A DNA stretch of 64,000 nucleotides from contig NZ_MDFN01000016.1 of assembly GCF_001730525.1 (NCBI RefSeq), forward strand, positions 1 to 64,000, written 5' to 3'. This document shows positions 140 to 47,654 of this stretch, piece by piece (the stretch's first letter is position 1; every line of letters starts with the position of its first letter). Position numbers and translations under genes: made by a program. The notes beneath the pieces are model-generated. The model saw nothing but the letters and a program-made list of their open reading frames with translations, did not search any database and was not told the origin of the DNA. This DNA comes from Arcticibacter eurypsychrophilus (GTDB taxonomy: Bacteria > Bacteroidota > Bacteroidia > Sphingobacteriales > Sphingobacteriaceae).

Positions 140-1477
140 ATGGGTCCTACTGTTCTGATTATTGATGACGAAAACAAGTTACGCGGTTTGCTTGCCCGCA
201 TTATAGAACTGGAGGGATTTACAGTTTTGCAAGCTCCGAATGGAAAATCAGGACTGAAGATGGTCGAGAACGAGGACATCAGGGTGGTAATCAGCGACGT
301 AAAACTGCCTGATGCCAACGGAGTTGAACTCGTTAAATCGATCAAAGAGATCAAGCCATTTGTTGAAGTGATCAACCTAACCGCATATGGGACCATACAA
401 GATGGTGTCCTTGCCATTAAAAATGGGGCATTTGATTATATCACAAAGGGCGATGATAACGACAAAATCATTCCGCTGCTGAACAAAGCCCTTGATAAAG
501 CGAATCTGCAATATCGGGTGAGTCAGCTGGAGCAAAAAGTAAGCAGCAAATATAGTTTTGATACCATACTAGGGAACTCAAGAGCTATAAAAGAAGCAAA
601 AGAACTAGCCAGGAAAGTAGCAAAAACCGATACTACCGTTTTGTTTCTAGGTGAAACAGGAACAGGAAAGGAAGTATTTGCACAGGCTATTTTATATGAA
701 AGTGCCCGTAAGATGAAACCCTTTGTAGCAGTCAACTGTAGTGCCATTTCGCGCGAACTATTAGAGAGTGAACTCTTTGGCTATAAAGCCGGTGCCTTTA
801 CAGGCGCTCAGAAAGATAAAAAAGGACTCTTTGAGGAAGCTCATGGAGGTACAATCTTCCTGGATGAGATTGGTGAGATGAGCCTCGATCTTCAGGCTAA
901 AATGTTACGCATCCTTGAATCAGGTACTTTTATTAAAGTGGGTGATACAAAAACCACAGAAGTAAATGTCCGCCTGATGGCTGCAACAAATCGCAACCTG
1001 CAAGAGGAGGCTGAAGCCGGCCGTTTCCGTCTCGATCTCTTTTACCGCCTTTCCGTTTTCACTATCTATTTACCCGCCTTGAAAGATCGTAAAGAAGACA
1101 TTGAACTCATTGCCAAACATTACCTGAAAGAGTTTGCCGAAAAAACGAGTTTCGGTAGCGGTAAAATGGACGACAAGTTTATCCAACTTTTAAAAGATCA
1201 TTCCTGGAAAGGAAATATCAGGGAACTTAAAAACATAATGGAACGCGTAACCATTCTTTCTGATGGAGGAATCATTACTCCCGATTTATTACCCTACGAA
1301 TTTCACTCCGGACAGCAGGAAACTCAATCTTTGGACCTAGCCAGTGTAGAAAAACATCATATCTCCAAAGTACTGCAGCATACCAAAGGGAATAAAACGG
1401 AAACAGCAAGATTGTTGGGGATAGGCCTGACAACCCTTTACCGTAAAATTGAAGAGTATAACATCCAGTCCTTTTAA
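140..1477 (+). CDS. Sigma-54-dependent response regulator (NtrC family), probable kdp activator
   Basis: This 445-residue protein is a two-component response regulator that activates sigma-54 RNA polymerase. The receiver domain spans about residues 3-118, with phospho-acceptor Asp53 in the VVISDVKLPD stretch. The AAA+ domain follows from about 140 to 375: Walker A GETGTGKE at 171-178, an intact GAFTGA sigma-54 contact loop at 218-223, and the Walker B region FLDEIGE at about 240-246. The C-terminus is a Fis-type helix-turn-helix (about 405-442). It stands directly before kdpFABC and the two sensor genes, where other bacteria have the OmpR-type KdpE, so I infer that it controls kdp. A TAATATTG sequence at 115-122 resembles the Bacteroidota -7 element. 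A strong bidirectional terminator follows the gene. Family assignment is secure; the target operon is inferred from position. Confidence 0.93.
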   Translation: MGPTVLIIDDENKLRGLLARIIELEGFTVLQAPNGKSGLKMVENEDIRVVISDVKLPDANGVELVKSIKEIKPFVEVINLTAYGTIQDGVLAIKNGAFDYITKGDDNDKIIPLLNKALDKANLQYRVSQLEQKVSSKYSFDTILGNSRAIKEAKELARKVAKTDTTVLFLGETGTGKEVFAQAILYESARKMKPFVAVNCSAISRELLESELFGYKAGAFTGAQKDKKGLFEEAHGGTIFLDEIGEMSLDLQAKMLRILESGTFIKVGDTKTTEVNVRLMAATNRNLQEEAEAGRFRLDLFYRLSVFTIYLPALKDRKEDIELIAKHYLKEFAEKTSFGSGKMDDKFIQLLKDHSWKGNIRELKNIMERVTILSDGGIITPDLLPYEFHSGQQETQSLDLASVEKHHISKVLQHTKGNKTETARLLGIGLTTLYRKIEEYNIQSF

Positions 1478-1821: not shown

Positions 1822-3540
1822 ATGAATACCGAATTAACTGGAGTAATCCTCACCTACATCATCACGCTGGCCATAGCAATTCCATTAGGAATTTACCTGG
1901 CTAAAGTATTCTCAGCAGAGAAAGTATGGACAGACTTTTTCAAGCCTTTGGAAAAATTCATCTATAAACTATCCGGTATAAATCCTGATCAACCCATGGA
2001 CTGGAAACAGCACATGAAAGCCTTATTAACTATCAACATGGTTTGGTTGATTTACGGATTTTTTGTACTGATCTTTCAGGATAAGCTTCCTCTGAATCCT
2101 GATGGAAATCCTGGACAGACACCTGATTTGGCCTTCAATACCATTATCAGTTTTGTGGTTAACTGCAATCTTCAACATTATTCAGGCGAAAGCGGACTTA
2201 CCTACCTGACACAGCACTTCGTAGTCATGTTCCTGCAATTTGTAAGTGCCGCAACCGGCATCGCAGCTGCATTCGTATTATTCAAGGCCTTTAGAGAAAA
2301 AAGCACAACCAATTTAGGCAACTTCTGGTTTTACTTTGTTCGTTCAATCACCCGCTTATTACTTCCTCTTTCTTTTTTAATAGCTATGGTACTCACCTTT
2401 AATGGTACACCATCCAGTTACGAAGGGAAAGATCAATATATTTCCCTTCAGGGCGATACCGTAAATGTATCAAGAGGACCTGCCGCAGGAATGATTGCCA
2501 TCAAACATCTGGGAACAAATGGTGGTGGATGGTTTGGCGCAAACTCTGCACATCCATTAGAAAACCCCAACTATCTCACCTCAATGGTTGAGTTAATTGC
2601 CCAGGTCATCATTCCTATTGCTATGGTCATTGCCTTCGGATATTTCATCCGCAGAAAAAGACTCGCATGGATGATCTTTGGCGTAATGACTATAGGCATG
2701 TTGCTCTTGCTGATCCCAACACTCAGCTCAGAGCTTGGCGGAAGTCATGCGCTTGCAAAAATGGGCATCTCGCAACACACCGGTGCCATGGAAGGCAAAG
2801 AAGTACGTTTCGGTCCGGCAATGTCAGCCTACTGGAGTACCGTAACCACTATTATTTCCACCGGATCAGTAAACAGTATGCATGATAGTTCCATGCCGTT
2901 AACCGGCTTATGGCAGATGCTGGGAATGATGATCAACTCATTCTATGGAGGTTGTGGCGTAGGTATCCTCAACTACTTCATTTATCTGATCATTGCGGTC
3001 TTTATATCTGGACTTATGGTTGGCCGAACCCCCGAATTCCTTGGGCATAAGGTCGAAGCCAGAGAAGTTAAAATAGCAGCCATCATCACCCTGCTAAGTC
3101 CCTTTCTAATTTTAGCAGGTACTGCAATTGCAAGTCACGTACTTACAACATCTCCCAATGCCGACTGGGCAGTAAAACCCGGAAACTGGTTAAATAACCC
3201 TGGGTTTCATGGTTTTTCAGAGATTCTTTATGAATATACCTCATCGAACGCCAATAACGGATCCGGCTTTGAGGGATTAGGCGATAACAATATCTGGTGG
3301 AACGTTTCAACCGGCCTGATCTTGTTACTAAGTCGATTTCTTCCTATCATCGCTCCTGTTGCAATAGCAGGACTACTTGCAAAGAAAAAATACATCCCCG
3401 AGTCTGCAGGTACTTTAAAAACCGATACATTAACCTTTAGCATGATGACCTTTGCGGTTATCGTTGTACTCAATGCACTTTCATATTTCCCTGCCCTGGC
3501 CTTAGGACCAATAGCAGAATACTTTACTCTCATTAAGTAA
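1822..3540 (+). CDS. kdpA: K+-transporting ATPase subunit A (KdpA)
   Basis: KdpA, 572 residues (E. coli about 557), is the channel-like, K+-selective membrane subunit of the high-affinity KdpFABC pump. The sequence shows about ten hydrophobic helices and the repeated selectivity-filter loops of the family, such as [16 protein letters not shown] (about residue 112), [15 protein letters not shown] (about 233) and [11 protein letters not shown]. It starts nine bases after kdpF and ends eight bases before kdpB, so the genes are co-transcribed. Expression is expected under K+ limitation. No anomalies were seen. Confidence 0.97.
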
Positions 3541-3548
3541 ATACATCG

Positions 3549-5588
3549 ATGAAAAATCAATCCAATCCATTATTTGAATCTGCTTTAGTGCAAACCGCAC
3601 TGAAACAGTCAATCCATAAACTTGATCCCCGGATAATGATTCGAAACCCGGTGATGTTCACAGTGGAAATCGGCACCTTGGTCATGCTGTTTGTTACTTT
3701 ATATTCCTCCACGCATCATGATCAGGGATCATTTGGATATAATCTAAGCATATTTATAGTGCTTTTACTCACCCTCCTATTTGCCAATTTTGCTGAAGCG
3801 ATTGCAGAAGCTCGAGGTAAAGCGCAGGCCGACAGCTTGCGCAAAACACGGGAAGACACACCTGCCAAAGTTTTACTAGAAAATGGTACCACAGAGATCC
3901 GTTCATCCAACCAATTACGAAAAGGAGATGTATTCGTTTGTGAAACCGGAGATACCATTCCAACCGACGGCGAAATCATCTCAGGGATTGCTACGATAGA
4001 CGAGTCCGCTATTACAGGAGAGTCAGCCCCTGTGATCAGGGAATCAGGGGGCGACAAATCATCCGTTACCGGTGGTACAAAAGTATTATCCGATTACATT
4101 AAAGTACAGGTTACTACCCAACCGGGGGAAAGCTTCCTGGATAAAATGATTGCTTTGGTAGAAGGTGCTTCCCGTCAGAAAACACCGAATGAAATTGCCC
4201 TGACCATTTTGCTTGCCAGTTTTACCTTAGTGTTCATCATCGTTTGTGTGACACTGAAACCCTTTGCAGACTATGCGAAGACACCCATTACCATTTCAGC
4301 CTTTATTTCCTTATTTGTTTGTTTGATCCCCACTACAATTGGAGGTCTGCTTTCGGCGATAGGAATTGCTGGAATGGATAGAGCTTTACGTGCCAATGTA
4401 ATCACTAAATCAGGTAAAGCAGTAGAAACTGCAGGTGATATTGATACATTGTTACTCGATAAAACAGGAACCATCACTATAGGAAATCGAAAAGCCACAA
4501 ACTTTTACCCTACAGCAGGAGTCAACCTAAATAATTTTGTTAAAAGTAGTTTACTCAGTTCTCTTTCTGATGAAACACCCGAAGGAAAGTCAATTGTAGA
4601 ACTTGCGGAAAGTTTAATGCCACGAGGATCATTTAACAGGTTAGAAACTTCATCAGCAAACTTTGTTAAGTTCACCGCAGAAACACGCTCAAGTGGAGTG
4701 GATTTACAGGACGGAAGGCAAATTAGGAAAGGTGCATTTGATACTATTAAAGTGATGTCAGAGCAAGCAGGTAATACATTTCCTGAGGATATTAAATCAA
4801 AAGTCATTGAAATCGCTTCTAATGGAGGAACCCCTTTAGTAGTAGCAGAAAACCTGAAAGTGCTTGGTGTAATTGAACTTCAAGACATCATCAAACCGGG
4901 CATTCAGGAACGTTTTGAACGCTTACGTAAAATGGGTGTAAAAACAGTCATGGTGACCGGTGACAATCCACTTACAGCCAAGTACATTGCTGAAAAAGCA
5001 GGTGTAGATGATTTTATTGCTGAAGCTAAACCTGAGGATAAGATGAACTACATCAAGGAGGAGCAGGCAAATGGTAAATTGGTCGCTATGATGGGTGACG
5101 GTACCAATGATGCTCCCGCTTTAGCACAGGCCGATGTTGGTGTAGCTATGAACAGTGGTACACAGGCTGCTAAGGAAGCAGGAAACATGGTAGACCTTGA
5201 TAATGACCCAACTAAGCTGATTGAGATTGTAGAAATCGGAAAACAACTGCTCATTACCAGGGGAACATTAACTACCTTTTCTATTGCCAATGACGTTGCC
5301 AAGTATTTTGCCATCGTACCCGCTCTTTTTATAGCATCTATACCGGCTTTGCAGGGTATGAATATCATGAATCTGCACAGTCCCGAAAGTGCCATCCTTT
5401 CCGCAGTGATCTTTAATGCCATCATTATTCCTATGCTGATTCCCCTTGCACTTCGTGGAGTGGCTTATAAACCCATAGGTGCAAGCGCCCTGTTACGCCG
5501 TAATATACTTATATACGGAATTGGCGGAGTGGTTGCCCCTTTTATAGGGATCAAATTAATTGATCTCCTGATTACTTTTATGTTTTAA
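3549..5588 (+). CDS. kdpB: K+-transporting P-type ATPase subunit B (KdpB)
   Basis: KdpB, 679 residues, is the ATP-hydrolysing P-type ATPase subunit that powers K+ uptake by KdpFABC. The phosphorylation motif [13 protein letters not shown], the actuator motif ITGESAPV, the nucleotide-binding KGAFD motif and the hinge [10 protein letters not shown] / [12 protein letters not shown] are all intact, with the expected membrane helices. Length matches E. coli KdpB (682). It lies between kdpA and kdpC with gaps of 8 and 10 bases. Confidence 0.97.
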
Positions 5589-5598
5589 AATTACTAAA

Positions 5599-6171
5599 AT
5601 GAAAAAATACATCATACAATCTATCCGTTTAACTTTAGTACTTATAGTACTGCTATGCGTGATATATCCTATCTTAATCGCTTTTGTTGGTAAACTTTCA
5701 AAAGGTGAAGGCGGTGGACAGAAGATAGTAGTAAACGGAAAAACAGTTGGTTATGCCAATATTGGACAGCTATTTACACGCACTGACTATTTTTGGGGAC
5801 GCCCATCTGCAGTGGAATATAATGCAGCAGGCTCTGCTGGATCTAATAAGGGTCCTTCCAACCCGGATTACTTAAAGCAGGTTGAAGAACGAATTGATAC
5901 CCTTCTGAAGTATCACCCCTATTTAAAACTTGCTGAAATCCCTGCGGACCTTGTAACCGCATCAGGCAGTGGTCTTGATCCTGACATTTCTCCTGAGGCT
6001 GCTCGTATCCAAATCAGAAGAGTGGCTGAAAACCGAAAACTAAATATAGATGAAGTAACTGCATTAGTAAACAAAAACACCGAAGGTCCTCTTCTTGGAT
6101 TAATAGGACCATCAAAAGTAAATGTGCTAAAATTGAATCTTGCTCTAAATGATATGACGAAATCCAGGTAA
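5599..6171 (+). CDS. kdpC: K+-transporting ATPase subunit C (KdpC)
   Basis: KdpC, 190 residues, has one N-terminal membrane helix (about residues 8-30) and a periplasmic domain that works with KdpB and KdpA. Family motifs visible are YFWGRPSA, SNPDYLKQVEERI, ASGSGLDPDISPEAA and LNLALND near the end. It closes the kdpFABC block; a gap of about 160 bases without a clear gene separates it from the sensor genes. Confidence 0.96.
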   Translation: MKKYIIQSIRLTLVLIVLLCVIYPILIAFVGKLSKGEGGGQKIVVNGKTVGYANIGQLFTRTDYFWGRPSAVEYNAAGSAGSNKGPSNPDYLKQVEERIDTLLKYHPYLKLAEIPADLVTASGSGLDPDISPEAARIQIRRVAENRKLNIDEVTALVNKNTEGPLLGLIGPSKVNVLKLNLALNDMTKSR

Positions 6172-6333
6172 AATAACCGATGAGATTTTTTCACCATTCG
6201 CTAAACAACTGATTGGATAGCTTTACAGCAAAAGAGTTTATACAATGGTAAAGCTAAGGAAAAGATTAAATAAACAAATGCCTGTTTTTTGCTAAGGCCC
6301 TTTATATGAATAAGTATTATAATTGATCAAACA

Positions 6334-7464
6334 ATGGACGACGACTTCCGGGAAAACTCTGTACAAAAGTTTCTTGATCTGGTAAAAAAGACTAGGAGAG
6401 GCAAATTTAAAGTCTACATAGGCATGAGTGCCGGTGTTGGAAAGACGTACCGGATGCTTCAGGAAGCACATTCTCTACTCCGAAACGGCATCAATATTCA
6501 AATTGGCTATATTGAAACACACAATCGTTCTGAAACACATTCTTTACTCGAGGGCATCCCTCTAATTCCAAGAAGGAAAATCTTTTATAAGGGAAAAGAA
6601 CTGGAAGAGATGGATGTTGCTGCTATTCTAAACAGGCATCCCGAAGTAGTTATTGTTGATGAACTTGCTCATACCAATGTAGAAGGGAGTAAAAATCAAA
6701 AACGCTGGCAGGATGTTGTAGACCTTCTTGAAGCTGGTATTAGTGTTATTTCAGCAGTAAACATTCAGCATATGGAAAGTCTGAATGAAGATGCTCAGAA
6801 AATAACAGGCATCCAGATCACGGAACGGATTCCCGACAATATCCTTTCCATGGCGGATGAGATTGTCAATATCGACTTAACAGCAGACGAACTTATTGAT
6901 CGTCTTAAAGAAGGAAAAATCTATGATAGCAGCAAAATTAATCTGGCTCTTAAGAATTTCTTTCAGGCTGATAAGATCCTGCAACTGCGTGAACTGGCAC
7001 TCAAGGAAGTTGCTCATTATGTAGAACGAAAAATCAATGCGGAGATCCCAAAGCAGATTAAACTTCGCCCCGAACGCTTTCTTGCATGTATCTCCTCCAA
7101 CCCCCAGATCGCAAAAACAGTAATCAGGAAAACTGCCCGTCTGGCCTCCTATTACCGGTCCCCCTGGTTAGTGTTGTATGTGCAAAGCAGCGCTGAAAAT
7201 GCAGATCGGATTAAGCTTGATAAACAACGTCATTTAATTAACAACATGAAGCTTGCTACAGAACTGGGGGCAGAAGTAATAAGAGTTAAAAGTGACTATA
7301 TTACGCAAACTATTATGCAAATTGCTGAAGAAAAAGAAATTACTACAATTTGTGTTGGAAAACCTCATTTAAATATTTGGCAAGTCTTGTTACGGACTGC
7401 CATCTTCAACCAGCTACTCCAAAAAATAGCAGCAACTGATACTGATTTAGTTATATTATCATGA
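6334..7464 (+). CDS. kdpD: Truncated KdpD: cytoplasmic sensor and Usp domains only
   Basis: This 376-residue protein matches only the N-terminal half of KdpD. It has the KdpD domain with Walker A GMSAGVGKT (30-38) and Walker B VIVDELAHTN (about 107-115), followed by a universal-stress-protein-like domain (about 245-376). The four membrane helices and the histidine-kinase core of full-length KdpD (about 890 residues) are absent. The stop is clean and the next gene overlaps it by four bases (ATGA), so this is an operonic arrangement and not a frameshift. I infer that it senses K+ or c-di-AMP, as the Usp region does in some KdpD proteins, and signals to the kinase encoded next. The function is inferred from family and context. 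Confidence 0.9.
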   Translation: MDDDFRENSVQKFLDLVKKTRRGKFKVYIGMSAGVGKTYRMLQEAHSLLRNGINIQIGYIETHNRSETHSLLEGIPLIPRRKIFYKGKELEEMDVAAILNRHPEVVIVDELAHTNVEGSKNQKRWQDVVDLLEAGISVISAVNIQHMESLNEDAQKITGIQITERIPDNILSMADEIVNIDLTADELIDRLKEGKIYDSSKINLALKNFFQADKILQLRELALKEVAHYVERKINAEIPKQIKLRPERFLACISSNPQIAKTVIRKTARLASYYRSPWLVLYVQSSAENADRIKLDKQRHLINNMKLATELGAEVIRVKSDYITQTIMQIAEEKEITTICVGKPHLNIWQVLLRTAIFNQLLQKIAATDTDLVILS

Positions 7465-9215
7465 AAATAAAAAGCAAACTACGCCTCGGATTCGGATTCC
7501 TATTCGTTGTGGTTATATTATTCGGGGGTCTATCTTTATATTATCTGCGTGAGATCTCAAACAACGCAAAAGTTATCCTGAAGGATAATTATGAGAGTCT
7601 TCATTATGCACGTGAAATGAGAACAGTACTGGACGAGACTGATTTGCCTCTTTCAGACATTGCCATTAACCGTTTTAACGCAGAGCTGCAAAGAGAGTTA
7701 AAGAACATTACAGAACCAGGGGAAGCTGAGGCGGCAACCAATCTTCAAAAAAGCTTTCAAGTATTACAAAACCCCATTCTTCAGATGAAGCAACTGGAGT
7801 CAGCTGAACGTTTTGCCCGGGTTTACCTCCGTAAAATTGAAGAATTGAATATGCAGGCTATTGTACGCAAAAACAACCAGGCGCAGCAGTCCGTAGAAAA
7901 GGCCACCATCTACCTGGGCATGATTGGCACATTCACTTTTCTAGTTTTGTTTAGTTTCAGTATCAACTTTCCCGGCTTTATAGCCAATCCTGTAAATGAA
8001 CTTACGGAAGGAATCAAGGAGATCAGTAGGAAAAACTATAAAACCAGACTAAATTTTAAAACCACAAAGGAATTTGAAGAAGTAGCGAGTGCTTTTAACC
8101 ATATGGCCTCCCGACTGAATGAATGGGAAAACAGTAACCTGGCACAAGTAATATCTGAAAAACTGCGGATCGAAACCATTATTGAACAGATGCAGGACGG
8201 GATAATAGGTTTAAATGAGAAAAACAAAGTCATCTTTATTAATCCTGCTGCGGAAAGTCTGTTAAACTTAAACGAAGAAAACATTGTAGGCTCTGATGCC
8301 CTTGATGTTGCAAAGAGAAATGATCTGCTAAAAAACCTTTTAGAAAATAAAAATCAGGATAAACCCATTAAGATCTATGCAAATGGAAAAGAGTCCTACT
8401 TCCAATTAGAAAGCAGGGAGATCACCATTCCTTTATACAATCAAAACTATGATAATCCAATCATTAAATCGGAAGAGTCTGCCGGTGAAGTGTATATACT
8501 AAGAAATATAACCAAATTCCGAGAGCTCGATGAAGCCAAGACCAATTTCATTGCCACCATTTCCCATGAGTTAAAAACCCCTATCGCTTCCATAAAAATG
8601 AGTCTACGGTTACTATATGACAATCGTGTAGGCAACCTAAACACGGAACAATCTGAGTTATTAAATCACATCAAAGATGATGCGGAGCGACTTTTAAAAA
8701 TAACAACTGAACTACTCGATCTGGCACAAGTTGAAACCGGAAACATTCAACTCAACCTCATGGCTGCTGATCCAAAACAAATTGTGGAATATGCAGTCAA
8801 CGCAGTGAAATTTCAGACCGAACAAAAGCGAATAACCCTAGGCATTAAAGTAAAAGATAACCTGCCTAAAGTACATGCTGATCTTGAAAAAACCGCTTGG
8901 GTGTTGGTTAACTTCCTATCAAATGCTATAAGATATAGTCCGGAAAATTCAACAATAAGCATTGAAGTGAAAAGCATGAGTAACTTTATTCAGTTTACCG
9001 TTCAGGATTCAGGAAATGGAATTGAAGAGAGATATCTGGACCGGCTGTTTGAACGCTATTTCCAGGTGCCGACAGATGGGCGCAACAAATCAGGATCAGG
9101 ACTAGGATTAGCTATTTCCAAGGACTTCATCGAAGCACAAAAAGGAGATATATTTGTTGAAAGTGAACTAGGTGCCGGAAGTAAGTTTGGTTTTAACCTT
9201 CCTAAAACCGCTTAG
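7461..9215 (+). CDS. Membrane HAMP-PAS sensor histidine kinase, partner of the split KdpD
   Basis: A 584-residue histidine kinase. Membrane helices lie at about 8-29 and 149-172 and bracket a periplasmic domain of about 120 residues. HAMP follows (about 172-225), then PAS (about 235-350), then HisKA with phospho-acceptor His369 in ISHELKTPIASI. The ATPase domain has the N box NFLSNAIRYSP and the G box GSGLGLAIS. Its ATG overlaps the stop of the truncated kdpD. With the NtrC-type regulator at the head of the island it forms a plausible three-part control circuit for kdp. The kinase is certain; the pairing is inferred. Confidence 0.93.
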   Translation: MKIKSKLRLGFGFLFVVVILFGGLSLYYLREISNNAKVILKDNYESLHYAREMRTVLDETDLPLSDIAINRFNAELQRELKNITEPGEAEAATNLQKSFQVLQNPILQMKQLESAERFARVYLRKIEELNMQAIVRKNNQAQQSVEKATIYLGMIGTFTFLVLFSFSINFPGFIANPVNELTEGIKEISRKNYKTRLNFKTTKEFEEVASAFNHMASRLNEWENSNLAQVISEKLRIETIIEQMQDGIIGLNEKNKVIFINPAAESLLNLNEENIVGSDALDVAKRNDLLKNLLENKNQDKPIKIYANGKESYFQLESREITIPLYNQNYDNPIIKSEESAGEVYILRNITKFRELDEAKTNFIATISHELKTPIASIKMSLRLLYDNRVGNLNTEQSELLNHIKDDAERLLKITTELLDLAQVETGNIQLNLMAADPKQIVEYAVNAVKFQTEQKRITLGIKVKDNLPKVHADLEKTAWVLVNFLSNAIRYSPENSTISIEVKSMSNFIQFTVQDSGNGIEERYLDRLFERYFQVPTDGRNKSGSGLGLAISKDFIEAQKGDIFVESELGAGSKFGFNLPKTA

Positions 9216-19487: not shown

Positions 19488-19855
19488 AATCTCCGCTGTA
19501 ACCTTATTATTGTTTATTTTACTATCGACTAGTGGTATTAGGGGTACTTATTGTCTTTTTACAAAATGAAACAAGTGTTAAGCAGTCAATTAAAAATCAA
19601 ACCTAGATCTTATCATTTTTGCAAATTCTTAAAATTTAAAAGTCGCCTGAACAGCTTATCTATCATTCACCTTAATTTAAAAACTTATAAAATTAATCTT
19701 ATCATCTTTTAAGGTTCCAGTTACTCCTAGGCTCCTATTTGGCGGCAAGAGAAATTTGTCCACTTGGGAAATGACTTGACTTTCAAAAGCTTCAAGTCCA
19801 AAATTGACCGCCGCAAACCTTAGCCCCTTATTTACAGCCGTCACTATTCAAAACA
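19488..19855. repeat. 368-bp direct repeat, copy 1
   Basis: This segment recurs at 22138-22506 in the same orientation, with about 14 substitutions and one single-base indel by hand alignment. It begins AATCTCCGCTGTAACC and ends CACTATTCAAAACA. Its outer ends carry a weak inverted GCTGTAA match. On the minus strand it contains an open 55-codon GTG-start frame (19677-19844) that is also open in copy 2. It has no transposase. Confidence 0.9.
19677..19844 (-). other. Possible 55-codon ORF inside repeat copy 1
   Basis: A GTG-start frame, open for 55 codons, ends LKDDKINFISF. The same frame is open, with identical length, in the second repeat copy. Of 11 differences between the copies, about five are synonymous and six are not, so there is no strong sign of protein selection. 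It may be a small gene, a gene remnant or chance. I do not recognise the product. Confidence 0.25.
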
Positions 19856-20205: not shown

Positions 20206-20703
20206 CTAAAAATGTTCACCCAATACTCTAAACATTTCAATAGTATTAACGCACTGTATACCTAATGGTGAACACACATCTGGAATTTTTAATTTGCTTT
20301 TTCTATTCGGTTCACTTGTTTCATGAGTAACTATCTTACCACCATTTGCCAAAGAGTAAGCAATTAGCCAGGCATCAGCTTCATTTGCATCCAAAAATTC
20401 ATTTAATGCTGCTGAATTATAATGGGTTGATTTAGAATGTGCCCAATTTGAAACAACAATATATTGCTCTATGATAAGATCTGTATTTTTAAAGAAATCG
20501 TTTGACAGATTTGCGTTACACCATAAAGTCAATTCATCTTTATTCAGATGTATCTCATCCTTTACTTTATCAATAGAAACAATCTTTCCTTCTGTAGCCA
20601 ATTCTTTAACCTTTAACCAAAAACCAGGTACAACATCCATTGGGTAGTGCATTCTGTGAGCCTGAATAAAGAAGTTGCTGTCTAAAATGAAAGGATTTAC
20701 CAT
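20206..20703 (-). CDS. PIN-domain ribonuclease-like protein (DUF4411 type), probable toxin
   Basis: A 165-residue protein with a PIN-like nuclease fold. The acidic residues expected at the metal site are present: Asp8 (FILDSNFFI), Glu50 (KVKDEI), Asp110 (EADAWLIAYS) and Glu128 (VTHETSEPNRKSK). The layout is that of DUF4411 proteins. It starts four bases after the stop of the ImmA/IrrE-type gene, so the two are co-transcribed. PIN proteins paired this way are usually regarded as toxins that cleave RNA, with the partner acting as antitoxin or regulator. The fold is well supported; toxicity is inferred. Confidence 0.85.
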   Translation of the reverse strand: MVNPFILDSNFFIQAHRMHYPMDVVPGFWLKVKELATEGKIVSIDKVKDEIHLNKDELTLWCNANLSNDFFKNTDLIIEQYIVVSNWAHSKSTHYNSAALNEFLDANEADAWLIAYSLANGGKIVTHETSEPNRKSKLKIPDVCSPLGIQCVNTIEMFRVLGEHF

Positions 20704-20707
20704 TAAG

Positions 20708-21838
20708 CTAGAAAAGATGTTTAGTTACAAAATTTTGATAGGTATCACCCTTTAAACCGGTAATCTTATAAGCATCACGGTATAAAAGTTTATTTTGCTT
20801 TACAGCTTGATCTACATATATAGCAAAACTCACACTAATTCGTTTTCGAGCAGTCGCATAAAAATCACCCCCACTTCCTTGACTTTCTTTTTTAAGTCGC
20901 AACCCTTCCATATATTGGTTATAAAAATGAAAGAATTCCGCTTTAGTGATTTTATCTAAATCCAAAGCCCTTCTAGCAATTACAATTGGACTAACTTTAA
21001 AATATCTTGCAACTTTTGTGATATCAGCTTTTTGTATCCACAATCTATTAAAAGAACTTGCCGGAACTAAAAATTCAGCAGCGATTTGATCGCATAATTT
21101 CTCAACGGGGTCATTAGCCGGCATTAAGTTTCGATTATCAAATCCAGCACTTTTACCTAGCCAGATATGAGCAAGTTCATGAATAATGGTAAACAATTGA
21201 GCCGCTTTAGCATCAGCAGCATTCACAAACATGAAAGGTACCATTTCGTTTACCAAAACAAAACCTCTACATTCTTCAACTGGAATTACACGCTGTGTAT
21301 TATTTTCTACAACACCATTGAAGTTAATTATGATACCTGCATTTTCAATTTTCTTTGTGATGAAGCTCAAAGTATCTTCATAGGTTTGAAAAGCGTTAGC
21401 CCATTCCGCATTCAGATTTAAAGTAATTCTGATATCATGTACAACATCCTCAAAGTTTGCCTTACTATCAAACTTACCCACAAAAGAGAGCGGGTCTTCA
21501 TTATTTTCCAATAAATAATCAGTGAGCCAGTCTTGCCTACGCTGTAATATTAAAATGGTATCGTAAATATTTAAACTAACCTGATTAGTTTTGCTATTGC
21601 CAGTTCTAAAAAATGGAAATGTAATGTGTTCTTTAGGTGGTTCCTGAAGAAATAAATAGCCAAAAGGAATATGAACACGCTTTGCAAAATCCTCTAACTG
21701 CTTAACGGTTGGATTTTTATCCTGTTCAATCCATTTTTTAACATTGGGGAACTTTTCTAAAAAATCCTCCAAAACATATCCTGCCCGAGCAATTGCCCAA
21801 GTAAGCATAGTTGGATTGATATTTATTTCAGTTCCCAT
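20708..21838 (-). CDS. ImmA/IrrE-family metallopeptidase with N-terminal HTH-like region, probable antitoxin/regulator
   Basis: A 376-residue protein. The N-terminal ~65 residues look like a helical Xre-type region (VKKWIEQDKNPTVKQLEDFA). A zinc peptidase domain follows, with HELAH at 220-224 and the family's downstream EKLCDQIAAEFLVP segment at about 246-259. I chose the ATG at 21838 (MGTEININPTML) because the longer frame to 21889 would run into a CRISPR-like repeat and gives no family match at its N-terminus. It forms an operon with the PIN gene, four bases apart. By analogy with Xre-COG2856/PIN modules it may act as antitoxin or as a damage-responsive protease. This role is inferred. Confidence 0.88.
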   Translation of the reverse strand: MGTEININPTMLTWAIARAGYVLEDFLEKFPNVKKWIEQDKNPTVKQLEDFAKRVHIPFGYLFLQEPPKEHITFPFFRTGNSKTNQVSLNIYDTILILQRRQDWLTDYLLENNEDPLSFVGKFDSKANFEDVVHDIRITLNLNAEWANAFQTYEDTLSFITKKIENAGIIINFNGVVENNTQRVIPVEECRGFVLVNEMVPFMFVNAADAKAAQLFTIIHELAHIWLGKSAGFDNRNLMPANDPVEKLCDQIAAEFLVPASSFNRLWIQKADITKVARYFKVSPIVIARRALDLDKITKAEFFHFYNQYMEGLRLKKESQGSGGDFYATARKRISVSFAIYVDQAVKQNKLLYRDAYKITGLKGDTYQNFVTKHLF

Positions 21839-21860
21839 TTTACAAATATAATTATATAAT

Positions 21861-22141
21861 TGATTTCTACCTCCTGAGGCCAGAATCAACTGATCTAGAT
21901 ACTATATTTCAGCTTGTCTTAATCCTTATTTGTGGTGGATATACCTCTTGAGGACTATGTTCGAAAAAATCTTCAGTCACTTTAAAAAGTCTTAATCCTT
22001 AATGTGTTGGACCTACCTCTTGAGGGATGATTTTACGCGTTATTAAAACCTACGAGTCAAAGTCTTAATCCTTATTGTGGTGGATCTACCTCTTGAGGCC
22101 ATAGGGTACATTAAGGAAACAGGCACTTTACTGTCTTAATC
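21861..22141. CRISPR. Decayed CRISPR array: three full repeats plus truncated repeats at both ends
   Basis: Three repeats of 37-38 bases lie at 21916-21953, 21989-22025 and 22062-22098. They start GTCTTAATCCTTA and end CTCTTGAGG, and differ from each other by one to three substitutions plus one inserted base. A 3' half-repeat (21861-21879) and a 9-base 5' fragment (22133-22141) flank them. The four intervening spacers are 36, 35, 36 and 34 bases long and are unrelated to one another. Degenerate repeats and cut ends mark a decaying array. No cas gene is present within the window. Transcription direction cannot be decided. Confidence 0.8.
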
Positions 22142-22506
22142 TCCGCTGTAACCTTATTATTGTTTATTTTACTATCGACTAGTGGCATTAGGGGTACTTA
22201 TTTGTCTTTGTACAAAATGAGACAAGTGTTAAGCAGTCAATTAAAAATCAAACCTAGATCTTATCATTTTTGCAAATTCTTAAAATTTAAAAGTCGCCTG
22301 AACAGCTTATCTATCATTCACCTTAATTTAAAAACTTGTAAAATTAATCTTATCATCTTTTAGGGTTCCACTTACTCCTAGGCTCCTATTTGGCGGCCAG
22401 AGAAATTTGTTTACTTGGGAAATGACTTGACTTTCAAGAGCTTCAAGTCCAAAGTTGACCTCCGCAAATCTTAACCCCTTATTTACAGCCGTCACTATTC
22501 AAAACA
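22138..22506. repeat. 369-bp direct repeat, copy 2
   Basis: Second copy of the element at 19488-19855, same orientation, roughly 96 percent identical by hand alignment. Its left edge meets the last CRISPR repeat after its first nine bases. No continuation of the CRISPR repeat is found beyond the right edge. Together the two copies bracket the peptidase remnant, the PIN/ImmA pair and the CRISPR relic. Confidence 0.9.
22328..22495 (-). other. Possible 55-codon ORF inside repeat copy 2
   Basis: Counterpart of the frame at 19677-19844: GTG start, 55 codons, ending LKDDKINFTSF. Both copies have an in-frame TGA two codons upstream of the GTG. Coding status is doubtful for the reasons given for copy 1. 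Confidence 0.25.
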
Positions 22507-22613: not shown

Positions 22614-23681
22614 TTAATCTTTCAAAGTCGGTCCATGCACCACTAATCTACCATCTTTAGTAACTTCCATTTTGTCAATAAACACTAGTCTTTGGTGTCC
22701 TGAAGCTTCAGTACGTCCATGATATACGCAAAGCATTTCCTTGCCGTCTGGTGTATATGTAATACTATTGTGCCCAGTTCCAGTTACTTTACCATTTTTT
22801 TGTAAAACAGGATTATTTTCTGCTTTCTTAAATGACCCTAAAGGACTTTTTGAAGTTGCATATCCTACTGCATAATTCTGCCCATCAAAGTTATTGGCAG
22901 AATACATCATGTAATATATCTCCCCTTTTTTGAAAATATTAGATCCTTCGGTCCATCTCCTGTTAACTTCCTTAGATGTTACTGACCTGCTCTCCCATTC
23001 ATCTTTCAGGTTTCCCATTTTAACCGGTGGTCGCAGTAACAAAACAGGCTCTCCTATTACACCTGAAAAGTCAGATTTCATCTCAACACCATATACCCAA
23101 CTTTCTTCCACCTCTTCATACCATCCTTTTTTCTTTGCCCAGTTTGCTACTTCACTTTTTACAGGGTGCTTATAGCATCATCTCGAATAGTACAAATAGG
23201 TTTTACCATTTTCAAACCACACATTAGCATCAATAATTGGATAATCCGGATTAAAAATTGGACGGTTGTGCAAATCTATAAAAGGTCCTGTCGGTTTATC
23301 TGACACGGCTACTCCTATCTTGAAATTTTCCTTTTCGTTATTAGGATTATGCTTCCATTGGGCGCTGTAGAACATATAGTATTTACCATCTCTTTTGTAA
23401 ACTTCGGGTGCCCAATAAGAATCTATACCCCATCCATTCTCATTATTATGGTAGTATACCTGCCCTTCAAGCTTCCAGTCTTGTAAATTGCTTGATGAAT
23501 ATGCTCCAAATCCAGACTCAACATCGCCACCAGTGCCATACATGTAGTATTTCCCGTCACCATCATACAATACATAAGGATCTCCAAATGGTATAGGTAA
23601 GGGGTTTTCTATAGCTTTTTGGGCTTTAGCAATAAAAACCGTCAGGAACAGACACAACACAATAAACTTAATCTTTCTCAT
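22614..23681 (-). pseudogene. Glycoside hydrolase family 43 gene interrupted by one in-frame TGA
   Basis: The full frame would give about 355 residues: a signal peptide (MRKIKFIVLCLFLTVFIAKAQ) and a GH43 five-bladed propeller acting on arabinan or xylan side chains. Three GH43 acidic residues are visible: Asp in IPFGDPYVLYD (base), Asp in PIIDANVWFE (pKa modulator) and Glu in RWTEGSNIF (acid). A TGA at 23178-23180, in frame after YLYYSR, splits it; the frame continues uninterrupted on both sides. The upstream product would lack the catalytic acid, so it should be inactive. The start at 23681 gives a proper signal peptide. The mutation looks recent, or it may be a sequencing error. Confidence 0.87.
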
Positions 23682-23865
23682 AATCTTATTTGACATTAAA
23701 TTAAAAACATAAATGAAAAGATAGCAATATAGCGCTGTATTCTTACTCACTATTTGCCCCTTATTTTTTGCACTCACATATGCGATAGTTAACCAATAAT
23801 CGATTAAATAAATTATAGCAGGTGCACTCTTTCTAACAAGATGTGCATAATATATCAACAGAAGA

Positions 23866-24834
23866 CTAGTCCTTCCTGCTAAAGAAAACACGCTTATTTA
23901 AGGTAACATCCGGAAAAACTTCTTTGACTTTAGTCTTTTTACTAGTAGCACAAGCATGCCTATTCATTTGACTTTCCAGTCCCAGCATCAGCAGATTACC
24001 TTTATAAAACATCTGTTTGATCTTGTCTTCCATGCCCTCGTAGTCGGTCGGTTGCATATTAACTTCTTTTAAGGGGTAGTTAGATGGTTTCTCAGATTGG
24101 AAAGCACCGATTATAGCACAAGGACTGAACTCTTTACTGTTCAACAAGACGCTTTCATTGGTTTGACCAACAGAGGAATAGAGCATTAACGACATACTTA
24201 CCAATGCCAGGCAATCATCAGGAATTGTTTCTGTAAAAGTAATCACTTGTCCTTTAACACTTTGATACCCTTCCAAATCCAGGTCTTGAAACCCTAAGTT
24301 TTCATAATACTCTTCCCTGAAGTTAAAAGCAACCAACATTAGCCTTATGCGGTGTTTCATATAGGCTCCGCTTGCCCCTTTAGGCCTTTTGATTCCAGTT
24401 TGGGTGTTCAAGGAGCCCAAGGTAACACTCACCAAACCTTCTTCACTTTTACTTACCGAGTGGCTCAACTGCAACACTTCATTCAGCCTACTGCTTGCAT
24501 TAAAGTCAATTCCCTGCAATAAAGATAGGTTTCCGTCATGCAGATCCCGTTTCCCTTTCTCACCACTCACATTATTTAATATCGACCGGTACACCAATTG
24601 GGTACTCCTATAAGCTGCAGTTCCATCCTTGAAAAAATAAGCCGGTTCAAATGCAGTCCTAATCACTGCAGCTGCCGAACTCGAAAGTCCAAACTCTGTA
24701 GCGCTCCTAATCGTTTTTTCCGTTTGCTTAAATGCCTTTGCTTTGCCTTGGATGATGTTCTTTCCCCGGTACTCCCTGTAAATCACAGAACCCGCTGTTC
24801 CGTGTACCATTCCTTTCTTATCTATACTAGCCAT
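23866..24834 (-). CDS. Conserved protein of unknown function
   Basis: A 322-residue soluble-looking protein without signal peptide or membrane helix. The N-terminus (MASIDKKGMVHGTAGSVIYR) and a Gly-Lys-rich segment recall the DUF6266-type proteins that are numerous in Pedobacter, but the match is weak and by memory. A Lys-rich C-terminus ends FFSRKD. Two-part repetition is suggested by the paired beta-rich regions (about 105-210 and 215-290). It lies upstream of the broken GH43 gene on the same strand, 184 bases away. No function is proposed. Confidence 0.6.
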   Translation of the reverse strand: MASIDKKGMVHGTAGSVIYREYRGKNIIQGKAKAFKQTEKTIRSATEFGLSSSAAAVIRTAFEPAYFFKDGTAAYRSTQLVYRSILNNVSGEKGKRDLHDGNLSLLQGIDFNASSRLNEVLQLSHSVSKSEEGLVSVTLGSLNTQTGIKRPKGASGAYMKHRIRLMLVAFNFREEYYENLGFQDLDLEGYQSVKGQVITFTETIPDDCLALVSMSLMLYSSVGQTNESVLLNSKEFSPCAIIGAFQSEKPSNYPLKEVNMQPTDYEGMEDKIKQMFYKGNLLMLGLESQMNRHACATSKKTKVKEVFPDVTLNKRVFFSRKD

Positions 24835-46874: not shown

Positions 46875-47654
46875 TTACTTTAAAGCATCTAAAACATGAT
46901 GCGCTTCTTTATTAGACTCTTCTTTACCCGTTAGTTTTGCAAATATGTGTTCTAAAGTTAAGTTTCCACCGGCTCTCAGATCCTCAAAAGAACCATCAGC
47001 AATAATTTCACCGTTGTTAATCAGTAAAATTCGATCTGAGACCTTTTCTACCACATCCATCATATGCGAACAATAAAAAATAGTTTTACCATTTTGTGCC
47101 AACAGGGCGATCAGTTCTTTAACCATCATAACCGCATTTGCATCCAAACCTGATAAAGGTTCATCCAAAATAATAATTTCAGGGTTATGAATAATCCCGG
47201 AGATTAGCAGCACTTTCTGTCGCATCCCTTTAGAGAAAGTATCCATGCGTTGATCTGCATTGGTATTGATACCAAAAGCGGTCAGCAATTTCATCGCCCT
47301 TTCGGCTATATGGGCTTCCTCCATGCCGTAAAGTTTACCTACGAAATCCAGATACTCCAAAGGAGTAAGCACTTCATAGATCTCGGCATTTTCGGGTACA
47401 TACCCTATCTTCGCTTTGATGGCGATAATATCGTCCTGTATATTCTTTCCATAAAATAAAACTTCGCCTTCATAGTCATTGATCAAACCGGTCAGTACTT
47501 TTACAGTAGTGGACTTTCCGGCACCATTTGGGCCGATATAGCCAATAACCTGTCCGGGGTAGATCTCTAAATTAATTCCTTTTAAAACCTGTTTATCGCC
47601 ATAACTCTTCCTCAGATTCCGGATGCTGATAACAGGTAATGATGCTGATTCCAT
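46875..47654 (-). CDS. ABC transporter ATP-binding protein (ABC-2 type)
   Basis: A 259-residue ATPase. It shows Walker A GPNGAGKSTTVK (about 42-53), a Q-loop region, the signature FSKGMRQKVLLISGI, Walker B IIILDEPLSGLDA and the switch histidine in YCSHMMDVV. It is of the multidrug/ABC-2 subtype and pairs with the permease encoded downstream. It starts 19 bases after the metal ATPase gene, so all three are likely co-transcribed. Confidence 0.94.
   Translation of the reverse strand: MESASLPVISIRNLRKSYGDKQVLKGINLEIYPGQVIGYIGPNGAGKSTTVKVLTGLINDYEGEVLFYGKNIQDDIIAIKAKIGYVPENAEIYEVLTPLEYLDFVGKLYGMEEAHIAERAMKLLTAFGINTNADQRMDTFSKGMRQKVLLISGIIHNPEIIILDEPLSGLDANAVMMVKELIALLAQNGKTIFYCSHMMDVVEKVSDRILLINNGEIIADGSFEDLRAGGNLTLEHIFAKLTGKEESNKEAHHVLDALK

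What the first reader, a model, noticed from the sequence alone, without database searches (positions are those of the whole stretch)
21861..22141. Degenerate orphan CRISPR array without cas genes
Three 37-38-base repeats separated by 35-36-base unique spacers, plus partial repeats at both ends with a further spacer each, form a textbook array that is decaying: the repeats differ from one another and the last is cut after nine bases at the edge of the direct repeat. No cas genes are in the window.
Basis: seen in the sequence. Interest (0 to 1): 0.6.

Follow-up and report, generated by a model that had tools for sequence, protein, structure and literature searches.

The report
Broken leftover of a CRISPR array
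This is a real but broken fragment of a bacterial immune-memory (CRISPR) array of a kind used by type III systems, stranded in a genome in which no type III effector gene was found; one of its four memories matches a mobile element elsewhere in the same genome, and the whole is most likely an ordinary genomic relic.

Summary
Three 37-38-nt repeats at a 73-nt period (21916-22098), four unlike spacers (36, 35, 36, 34 nt) and two cut repeats (21867-21879; 22133-22141) form a genuine CRISPR array fragment. The repeat belongs to a family found mainly in Bacteroidota, often in long arrays beside Cas1, PrimPol, Cas2 and Csm/Cas10 genes; the published Bacteroides fragilis III-B repeat shares its first 15 bases. 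It is a type III array, probably read on the minus strand. 'No cas genes' holds for the window, not for the genome: a complete type I-B (I-PGING) operon with a different 30-nt repeat lies on another contig. The genome has one Cas1 (I-B) and no detectable RAMP gene. The repeat occurs in 1 of 399 family genomes sampled (this one) and RAMPs in 0 of 121, so the fragment may well have come from outside the family. Both ends are sharp breakpoints: the left abuts the promoter flank of an ImmA/DUF4411 gene pair, the right one copy of a 369-bp direct repeat; no leader is recognisable. Spacer 4 matches (31/34) a small gene in a 13.3-kb tRNA-Leu-integrated element of the same genome, antisense to it as type III needs. 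Most likely an inert relic; cas-less III-B arrays are already published.

The parts
21916..21953 (-). CRISPR repeat R1 (38 nt, one inserted base)
21989..22025 (-). CRISPR repeat R2 (37 nt, 3 substitutions against R3)
22062..22098 (-). CRISPR repeat R3 (37 nt), the copy used for comparison with the family
21867..21879 (-). cut distal repeat: first 13 nt in crRNA direction only, 12 of 13 matching
   Evidence: homology with relative G004 ends at 21866
22133..22141 (-). cut leader-side repeat: last 9 nt only, 4 of them shared with the direct repeat
21880..21915 (-). spacer S1 (36 nt); only a chance-level phage match
21954..21988 (-). spacer S2 (35 nt); only a chance-level phage match
22026..22061 (-). 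spacer S3 (36 nt); only a chance-level plasmid match
22099..22132 (-). spacer S4 (34 nt), 31/34 match to a gene of a 13.3-kb tRNA-Leu-integrated element on contig C55 of the same genome
22138..22506 (+). second copy of a 369-bp direct repeat that cuts the array on its presumed leader side
19488..19855 (+). first copy of the same direct repeat
20708..21838 (-). ImmA/IrrE-type (Peptidase_M78) gene, neighbour on the left; also in relative G004, there without the array
20206..20703 (-). DUF4411 gene next to it

Best explanation
The feature is a broken, inert fragment of a type III CRISPR array, probably read on the minus strand. Rearrangements cut it inside a repeat on both sides: on the left at the promoter flank of an ImmA/DUF4411 gene pair, on the right at a duplicated 369-bp segment. 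Without type III effector proteins it cannot act, and without a leader or a matching Cas1 it cannot grow. I favour that it came into this lineage from another Bacteroidota group (about 0.7; rival 1 is the alternative and concerns origin only, so the odds of these two overlap). Shown: the repeat family, type III neighbours in other genomes, no RAMP and no second Cas1 detected here, both breakpoints, and the spacer-4 match to an integrated element. Inferred: direction, arrival from outside, order of events, lack of expression.
For: Repeat architecture. A loose repeat pattern occurs in 95 stretches of named genomes; of the 80 held as loci, 77 have titles that I read as Bacteroidota (3 not: Thalassovita, a Bacillota and a Clostridia MAG), 56 hold three or more exact units and 32 nine or more. 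Distances under 90 between neighbouring exact units: n = 739, median 73, here 73 and 73. Closest consensus: Lunatimonas MAG L129, 5 of 37 differences. Neighbours at five loci that I picked: Cas1, CRISPR PrimPol type B, Cas2 (L120); PF08800 PrimPol-like domain and Cas2 (L129); PF08800 (L062); Csm1, 3, 4, 5 and Csm6-like (L106); Cas10 palm domain (L084). RAMPs in 12 of 13 repeat-bearing genomes that I picked, but in 0 of 6 genus genomes and 0 of 121 family genomes, this one counted in both. B. fragilis III-B repeat GTCTTAATCCTTATTATACTGGAATACATCTACAT, tied to cas10 (PMC9367070, passages). Rfam CRISPR-DR7 on the minus strand. One Cas1 in the genome, of I-B type. Junctions. Spacer 4 target in a segment between a tRNA-Leu end and a 17-bp copy of it, with an integrase gene.
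Against: The Rfam matches are below the curated threshold (25.6 and 19.3 against 37 bits). As RNA, R3 folds more stably on the plus strand (-7.1) than on the minus strand (-4.2 kcal/mol), and no fold stands out from its shuffles, so folding does not support the minus direction. Three of four spacers have no convincing target. Absence of type III here rests on RAMP and Cas1 models in an assembly of 93 contigs; Cas10 and PrimPol were not searched genome-wide, and a PF08800 protein does occur in the tRNA-Leu element. Arrival from outside rests on samples, and no donor with shared spacers was seen. A promoter-like TAnnTTTG site lies upstream on the minus strand at 22256-22249, so transcription is not excluded. 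Two flanking proteins tested at type III-like loci had no family (L084:5529-6230; L062:6250-7647).
Confidence: 0.87

Rival explanations
1. Origin within the family: an ancestor of this genus had a type III system and lost its cas genes in place, leaving this fragment. (Compatible with the inert-relic core of the best explanation.)
For: Cas-less III-B arrays in B. fragilis are put down to loss of the cas genes or to transfer of the array alone (PMC5704556, passages). The left flank is a conserved chromosomal locus.
Against: RAMPs in 0 of 121 and the repeat in 1 of 399 family genomes, this one; at the syntenic place relative G004 shows other genes and no array.
Confidence: 0.25
2. The array is still functional in trans: the resident type I-B Cas6 or complex processes its transcript into working guides.
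For: A complete I-B (I-PGING) operon with Cas6, Cas5p, Csp2, Csp1, Cas3, Cas4, Cas1 and Cas2 exists in the genome.
Against: The I-B repeat is 30 nt and of different sequence; the 37-nt family goes with type III genes; the minimum-energy fold of R1 no longer has the stem of R2 and R3; the leader side is cut.
Confidence: 0.05
3. It is a false CRISPR: a non-CRISPR interspersed repeat.
For: Only three full, non-identical repeats; a three-repeat, two-spacer 'orphan array' of B. fragilis was later judged an artefact on such grounds (PMC9367070, passages).
Against: The repeat matches a cas-linked family in sequence and period, and spacer 4 matches an integrated element.
Confidence: 0.02
4. The fragment has been taken over as a regulatory leader of the ImmA/DUF4411 pair, which lies just downstream on the same strand (compare CreTA, recalled, where a crRNA-like RNA represses a toxin).
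For: Same strand and adjacent: array end 21867, gene start 21838.
Against: The best match of each spacer in the window outside the array lies elsewhere, at scores of 21-26; relative G004 has the pair without the array.
Confidence: 0.03

Closest known systems
Type III-B CRISPR arrays of Bacteroides fragilis (repeat BfragL35; PMC9367070 and PMC5704556, passages read)
   Same: Repeat shares its first 15 bases (GTCTTAATCCTTATT) and a TGGA core; III-B arrays without adjacent cas genes, in four isolates without III-B cas genes anywhere, are reported there.
   Different: The B. fragilis repeat is 35 nt; the III-B array lengths visible in the passages run from 4 upward; here three full repeats remain and both ends are cut.
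Type III arrays beside Cas1-CAPP_B-Cas2 in Bacteroidota (PMC8211822, passages; loci L120, L129)
   Same: Repeat family, length and period; the L129 repeat differs from R3 at 5 of 37 positions.
   Different: Those have cas genes, uniform repeats and 12 and 9 units. In this genome no RAMP and no second Cas1 were found; PrimPol was not searched.
Type I-B (I-PGING) CRISPR-Cas of the same genome (contig C44)
   Same: Same cell; also a CRISPR array.
   Different: 30-nt repeat of other sequence, long array, own complete cas operon.

Membership tests
CRISPR array | near-identical repeats of about 23-50 nt at regular spacing (definition recalled) | tested here: met
   37-38 nt, 73 and 73 apart
CRISPR array | unlike spacers of similar length | tested here: met
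   36, 35, 36, 34 nt
CRISPR array | spacers derived from mobile elements | tested here: met
   1 of 4: S4, 31/34, tRNA-Leu-integrated element; S1-S3 no convincing target
CRISPR array | leader next to the first repeat | tested here: not met
   the presumed leader side is a copy of a 369-bp segment found also at 19488; depends on the inferred direction
Type III CRISPR-Cas system | repeat family linked to type III genes | tested here: met
Type III CRISPR-Cas system | effector genes (Cas10, RAMPs) in the genome | tested here: not met
   RAMP model PF03787 absent; Cas10 itself was not searched genome-wide
Type III CRISPR-Cas system | guide complementary to a transcript | tested here: inconclusive
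   S4 on the minus strand is antisense to the target's reading frame, but it is one spacer and the direction is inferred from relatives
Type I-B array of the same genome | same repeat as the resident I-B array | tested here: not met
Functional array | transcribed and processed into crRNA | not testable with these tools
   needs RNA

The most novel reading that the evidence does not exclude
A stand-alone type III array fragment, carried between bacterial families without cas genes and settled beside an ImmA/DUF4411 pair, is transcribed and its guides are used in trans (by the resident I-B Cas6 or by a type III system met on a mobile element), giving conditional immunity against a family of tRNA-Leu elements.
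Probability: 0.04. Interest if true: 0.5.

Novelty: new member of a known kind. Interest (0 to 1): 0.15.

Why it matters
It is a relic with a history: it records that a type III array was once in, or passed into, a bacterial family where the sampled genomes show no type III effector genes, and that a relative of a resident tRNA-Leu element was once a target. It also warns that a cas-free window is not a cas-free genome. It does not change what is known about CRISPR.

Tried and rejected
Rejected: false CRISPR (family match); the array being an outlying part of the resident I-B system (different repeat); a CreTA-like link to the ImmA/DUF4411 pair (no spacer match there above background, in which S1 was used one base short). 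A strict exact repeat pattern in genome contigs found nothing; the looser one found the family there and nothing in viral contigs.

Led nowhere: one exact 18-21-nt core per spacer against viral contigs, 0 hits each; the array against phages (12 records): S2 to seven Listeria phage records at 83.8-86.5%, E 0.3 to 3, four of the seven annotated there as DUF955, metallo-protease or ImmA/IrrE; S1 to a Bacillus phage at 84.8%, E 3; the other four records touch repeat R1 or its edge, E 3; all taken as chance. The array against plasmids: 22 nt of S3 in one Salmonella plasmid, E 0.8, chance. S4 alone against plasmids (16 records): 19-23 nt, E 2 to 6, chance; S1-S3 were not sent alone. The origin of the 369-bp direct repeat was not found: no match in 40 relatives or, beyond a 28-nt stretch in one genome, in a phylum sample of 395 genomes, this one counted (two candidate places a genome were scored). 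The TAnnTTTG site upstream on the minus strand was not taken as evidence, since its spacing to the next TTG is short. Paper searches: one search found no paper; some searches were seen as listings, and from that PMC5704556 and PMC6737040 were opened for passages (the latter paper not used); led to PMC8211822 and PMC9367070 (passages). No paper was read whole.

Full report
What is there. The window holds three full repeats at 21916-21953, 21989-22025 and 22062-22098 (38, 37, 37 nt), 73 bases apart, with two cut repeats outside them. R2 has three substitutions and R1 one substitution and one inserted base against R3. The four spacers are 36, 35, 36 and 34 nt. A scan of the window on both strands found no further copy at a score of 24 or more; the repeats score 59, 64 and 74, and of four shuffled windows one reached 24. 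In the window's genome the 15-base start of the repeat occurs twice without mismatch and twice with one mismatch; three of these four are in the array.

What kind of array. A loose pattern of the repeat found 95 stretches in named genomes; 80 were held as loci. I read 77 of the 80 titles as Bacteroidota (Bacteroidales, Prevotella, Cyclobacterium, Lunatimonas, Chitinophagaceae and others); the other three are Thalassovita, a Bacillota and a Clostridia MAG. 56 of the 80 loci hold three or more exact units, 32 nine or more, 13 only one. The closest consensus is that of a Lunatimonas MAG, 5 differences in 37. Distances under 90 between neighbouring exact units have a median of 73 (5-95%: 71-76, n = 739). 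Proteins were named at five loci picked from the 18 printed: Cas1, CRISPR-associated PrimPol type B and Cas2 in L120; a PF08800 (PrimPol-like) protein and Cas2 in L129; a PF08800 protein in L062; Csm1, Csm3, Csm4, Csm5 and a Csm6-like protein (below the NCBIfam cut-off, above Pfam's) in L106; a Cas10 palm domain in L084. Two other proteins tested there, in L084 and L062, had no family. RAMP genes are in 12 of 13 repeat-bearing genomes that I picked; the miss, G417 (L120), is a MAG with the Cas1-PrimPol-Cas2 set. A published table gives the B. fragilis type III-B repeat, tied to cas10, as GTCTTAATCCTTATTATACTGGAATACATCTACAT (PMC9367070, passages), which shares the first 15 bases. PMC8211822 (passages) says that CAPP_B proteins are predominantly in type III operons and almost exclusively in Bacteroidetes.

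Direction. In all five named loci the repeat reads ...GGATTAAGAC in the direction of the cas genes (my reading). Rfam's CRISPR-DR7 matches R3 and R1 on the minus strand, below its curated threshold (25.6 and 19.3 against 37 bits). On that strand R2 and R3 fold with the DR7 stem, and the minimum-energy fold of R1 does not have it; none of the folds stands out from shuffles, and R3 folds more stably on the plus strand (-7.1 against -4.2 kcal/mol), so the fold gives no support. From the genes of relatives and from DR7 I read the array on the minus strand, with spacer 4 nearest to the lost leader.

Cas genes. Of the window's 53 ORFs of 100 aa or more, 40 were compared with PADLOC and none is a cas gene; hits were the ImmA/IrrE protein, a protein at 46875-47654 with matches to several defence-protein models (best mad3), and a sigma-54-type regulator whose match leaves out the first 148 positions of the best model. 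Elsewhere the genome has one Cas1, of I-B type, with Cas4 and Cas2 beside it, in an operon with Cas6, Cas5p, Csp2, Csp1 and Cas3 of type I-PGING, next to a long array with the repeat CCCTTAATCGCACCGTACTGGAATTGAAAT. RAMPs were found in 0 of 6 genus genomes and 0 of 121 family genomes, this one counted in both; the same search rang in 4 of 14 control genomes. The loose repeat pattern occurs in 1 of 399 family genomes, this one; so does a stricter pattern with 3 mismatches allowed. Cas10 and PrimPol were not searched genome-wide.

Breakpoints. In the genus relative G004 the ImmA/IrrE (Peptidase_M78) and DUF4411 pair sits in the same place. Homology runs from 20207 to 21866 at 88% and stops exactly where the cut repeat begins; G004 has other sequence and genes there. 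On the other side the array ends at GTCTTAATC, whose last four bases are the first four of a 369-bp segment that also lies at 19488-19855 at 96% identity. The array is thus cut inside a repeat on both sides, and no leader is recognisable. The 4% difference between the two copies argues against an assembly error (inference).

Spacer 4. It matches C55:140668-140701 in the same genome with 3 mismatches in 34; in 379 family genomes, this one counted, nothing but the array and this place matched, and the reversed control pattern had no hit. The match lies in a 91-aa reading frame, without a named family, inside a segment that runs from the 3' end of a tRNA-Leu gene to a 17-bp copy of that end 13.3 kb away, next to an integrase gene; a PF08800 (primase-like) and a DnaB/AAA-like protein are also there. 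Spacer 4 read on the minus strand is antisense to that frame, as an RNA-targeting system needs. The mismatches suggest that the original target was a relative of this element (inference). A live type III system with this spacer might have harmed a cell holding the element; whether that favoured the loss of the system is speculation.

Verdict. A genuine, broken, most likely inert fragment of a type III CRISPR array, probably brought in from outside the family. Cas-less III-B arrays in Bacteroidota are in print (PMC5704556, passages), where loss of the system or transfer of the array alone are offered as explanations. That I-PGING is a form of type I-B is recalled and agrees with the I-B Cas1 model.

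Noticed in passing
window 19488-19855 and 22138-22506: A 369-bp direct repeat (96%) that flanks the ImmA/DUF4411 pair and the array; no match in 40 relatives or, but for a 28-nt stretch in one genome, in a phylum sample of 395 genomes. Its nature is unknown.
   Followed up: partly
G000:C44, L033 about 2430-8000: The resident I-B array holds some spacers several times in tandem and repeats whole blocks of spacers: internal duplication or an assembly effect.
   Followed up: no
G000:C55:139875-153193 (L177 1375-14693): 13.3-kb segment integrated at tRNA-Leu with 17-bp end repeats, integrase, primase-like and AAA proteins; its kind was not studied further.
   Followed up: partly
window 22614-23891: A glycosyl hydrolase family 43 gene split into two reading frames (22614-23111 and 23178-23891), probably a pseudogene.
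   Followed up: no
window 23866-24834: A 322-aa gene without a Pfam match whose DNA has six further copies at 81-83% in the same genome among the places listed.
   Followed up: no
window 140-1477: Sigma-54-type regulator resembling RtcR/PspF models; the best match leaves out the model's first 148 positions, where the CARF part would lie by the model's name.
   Followed up: no
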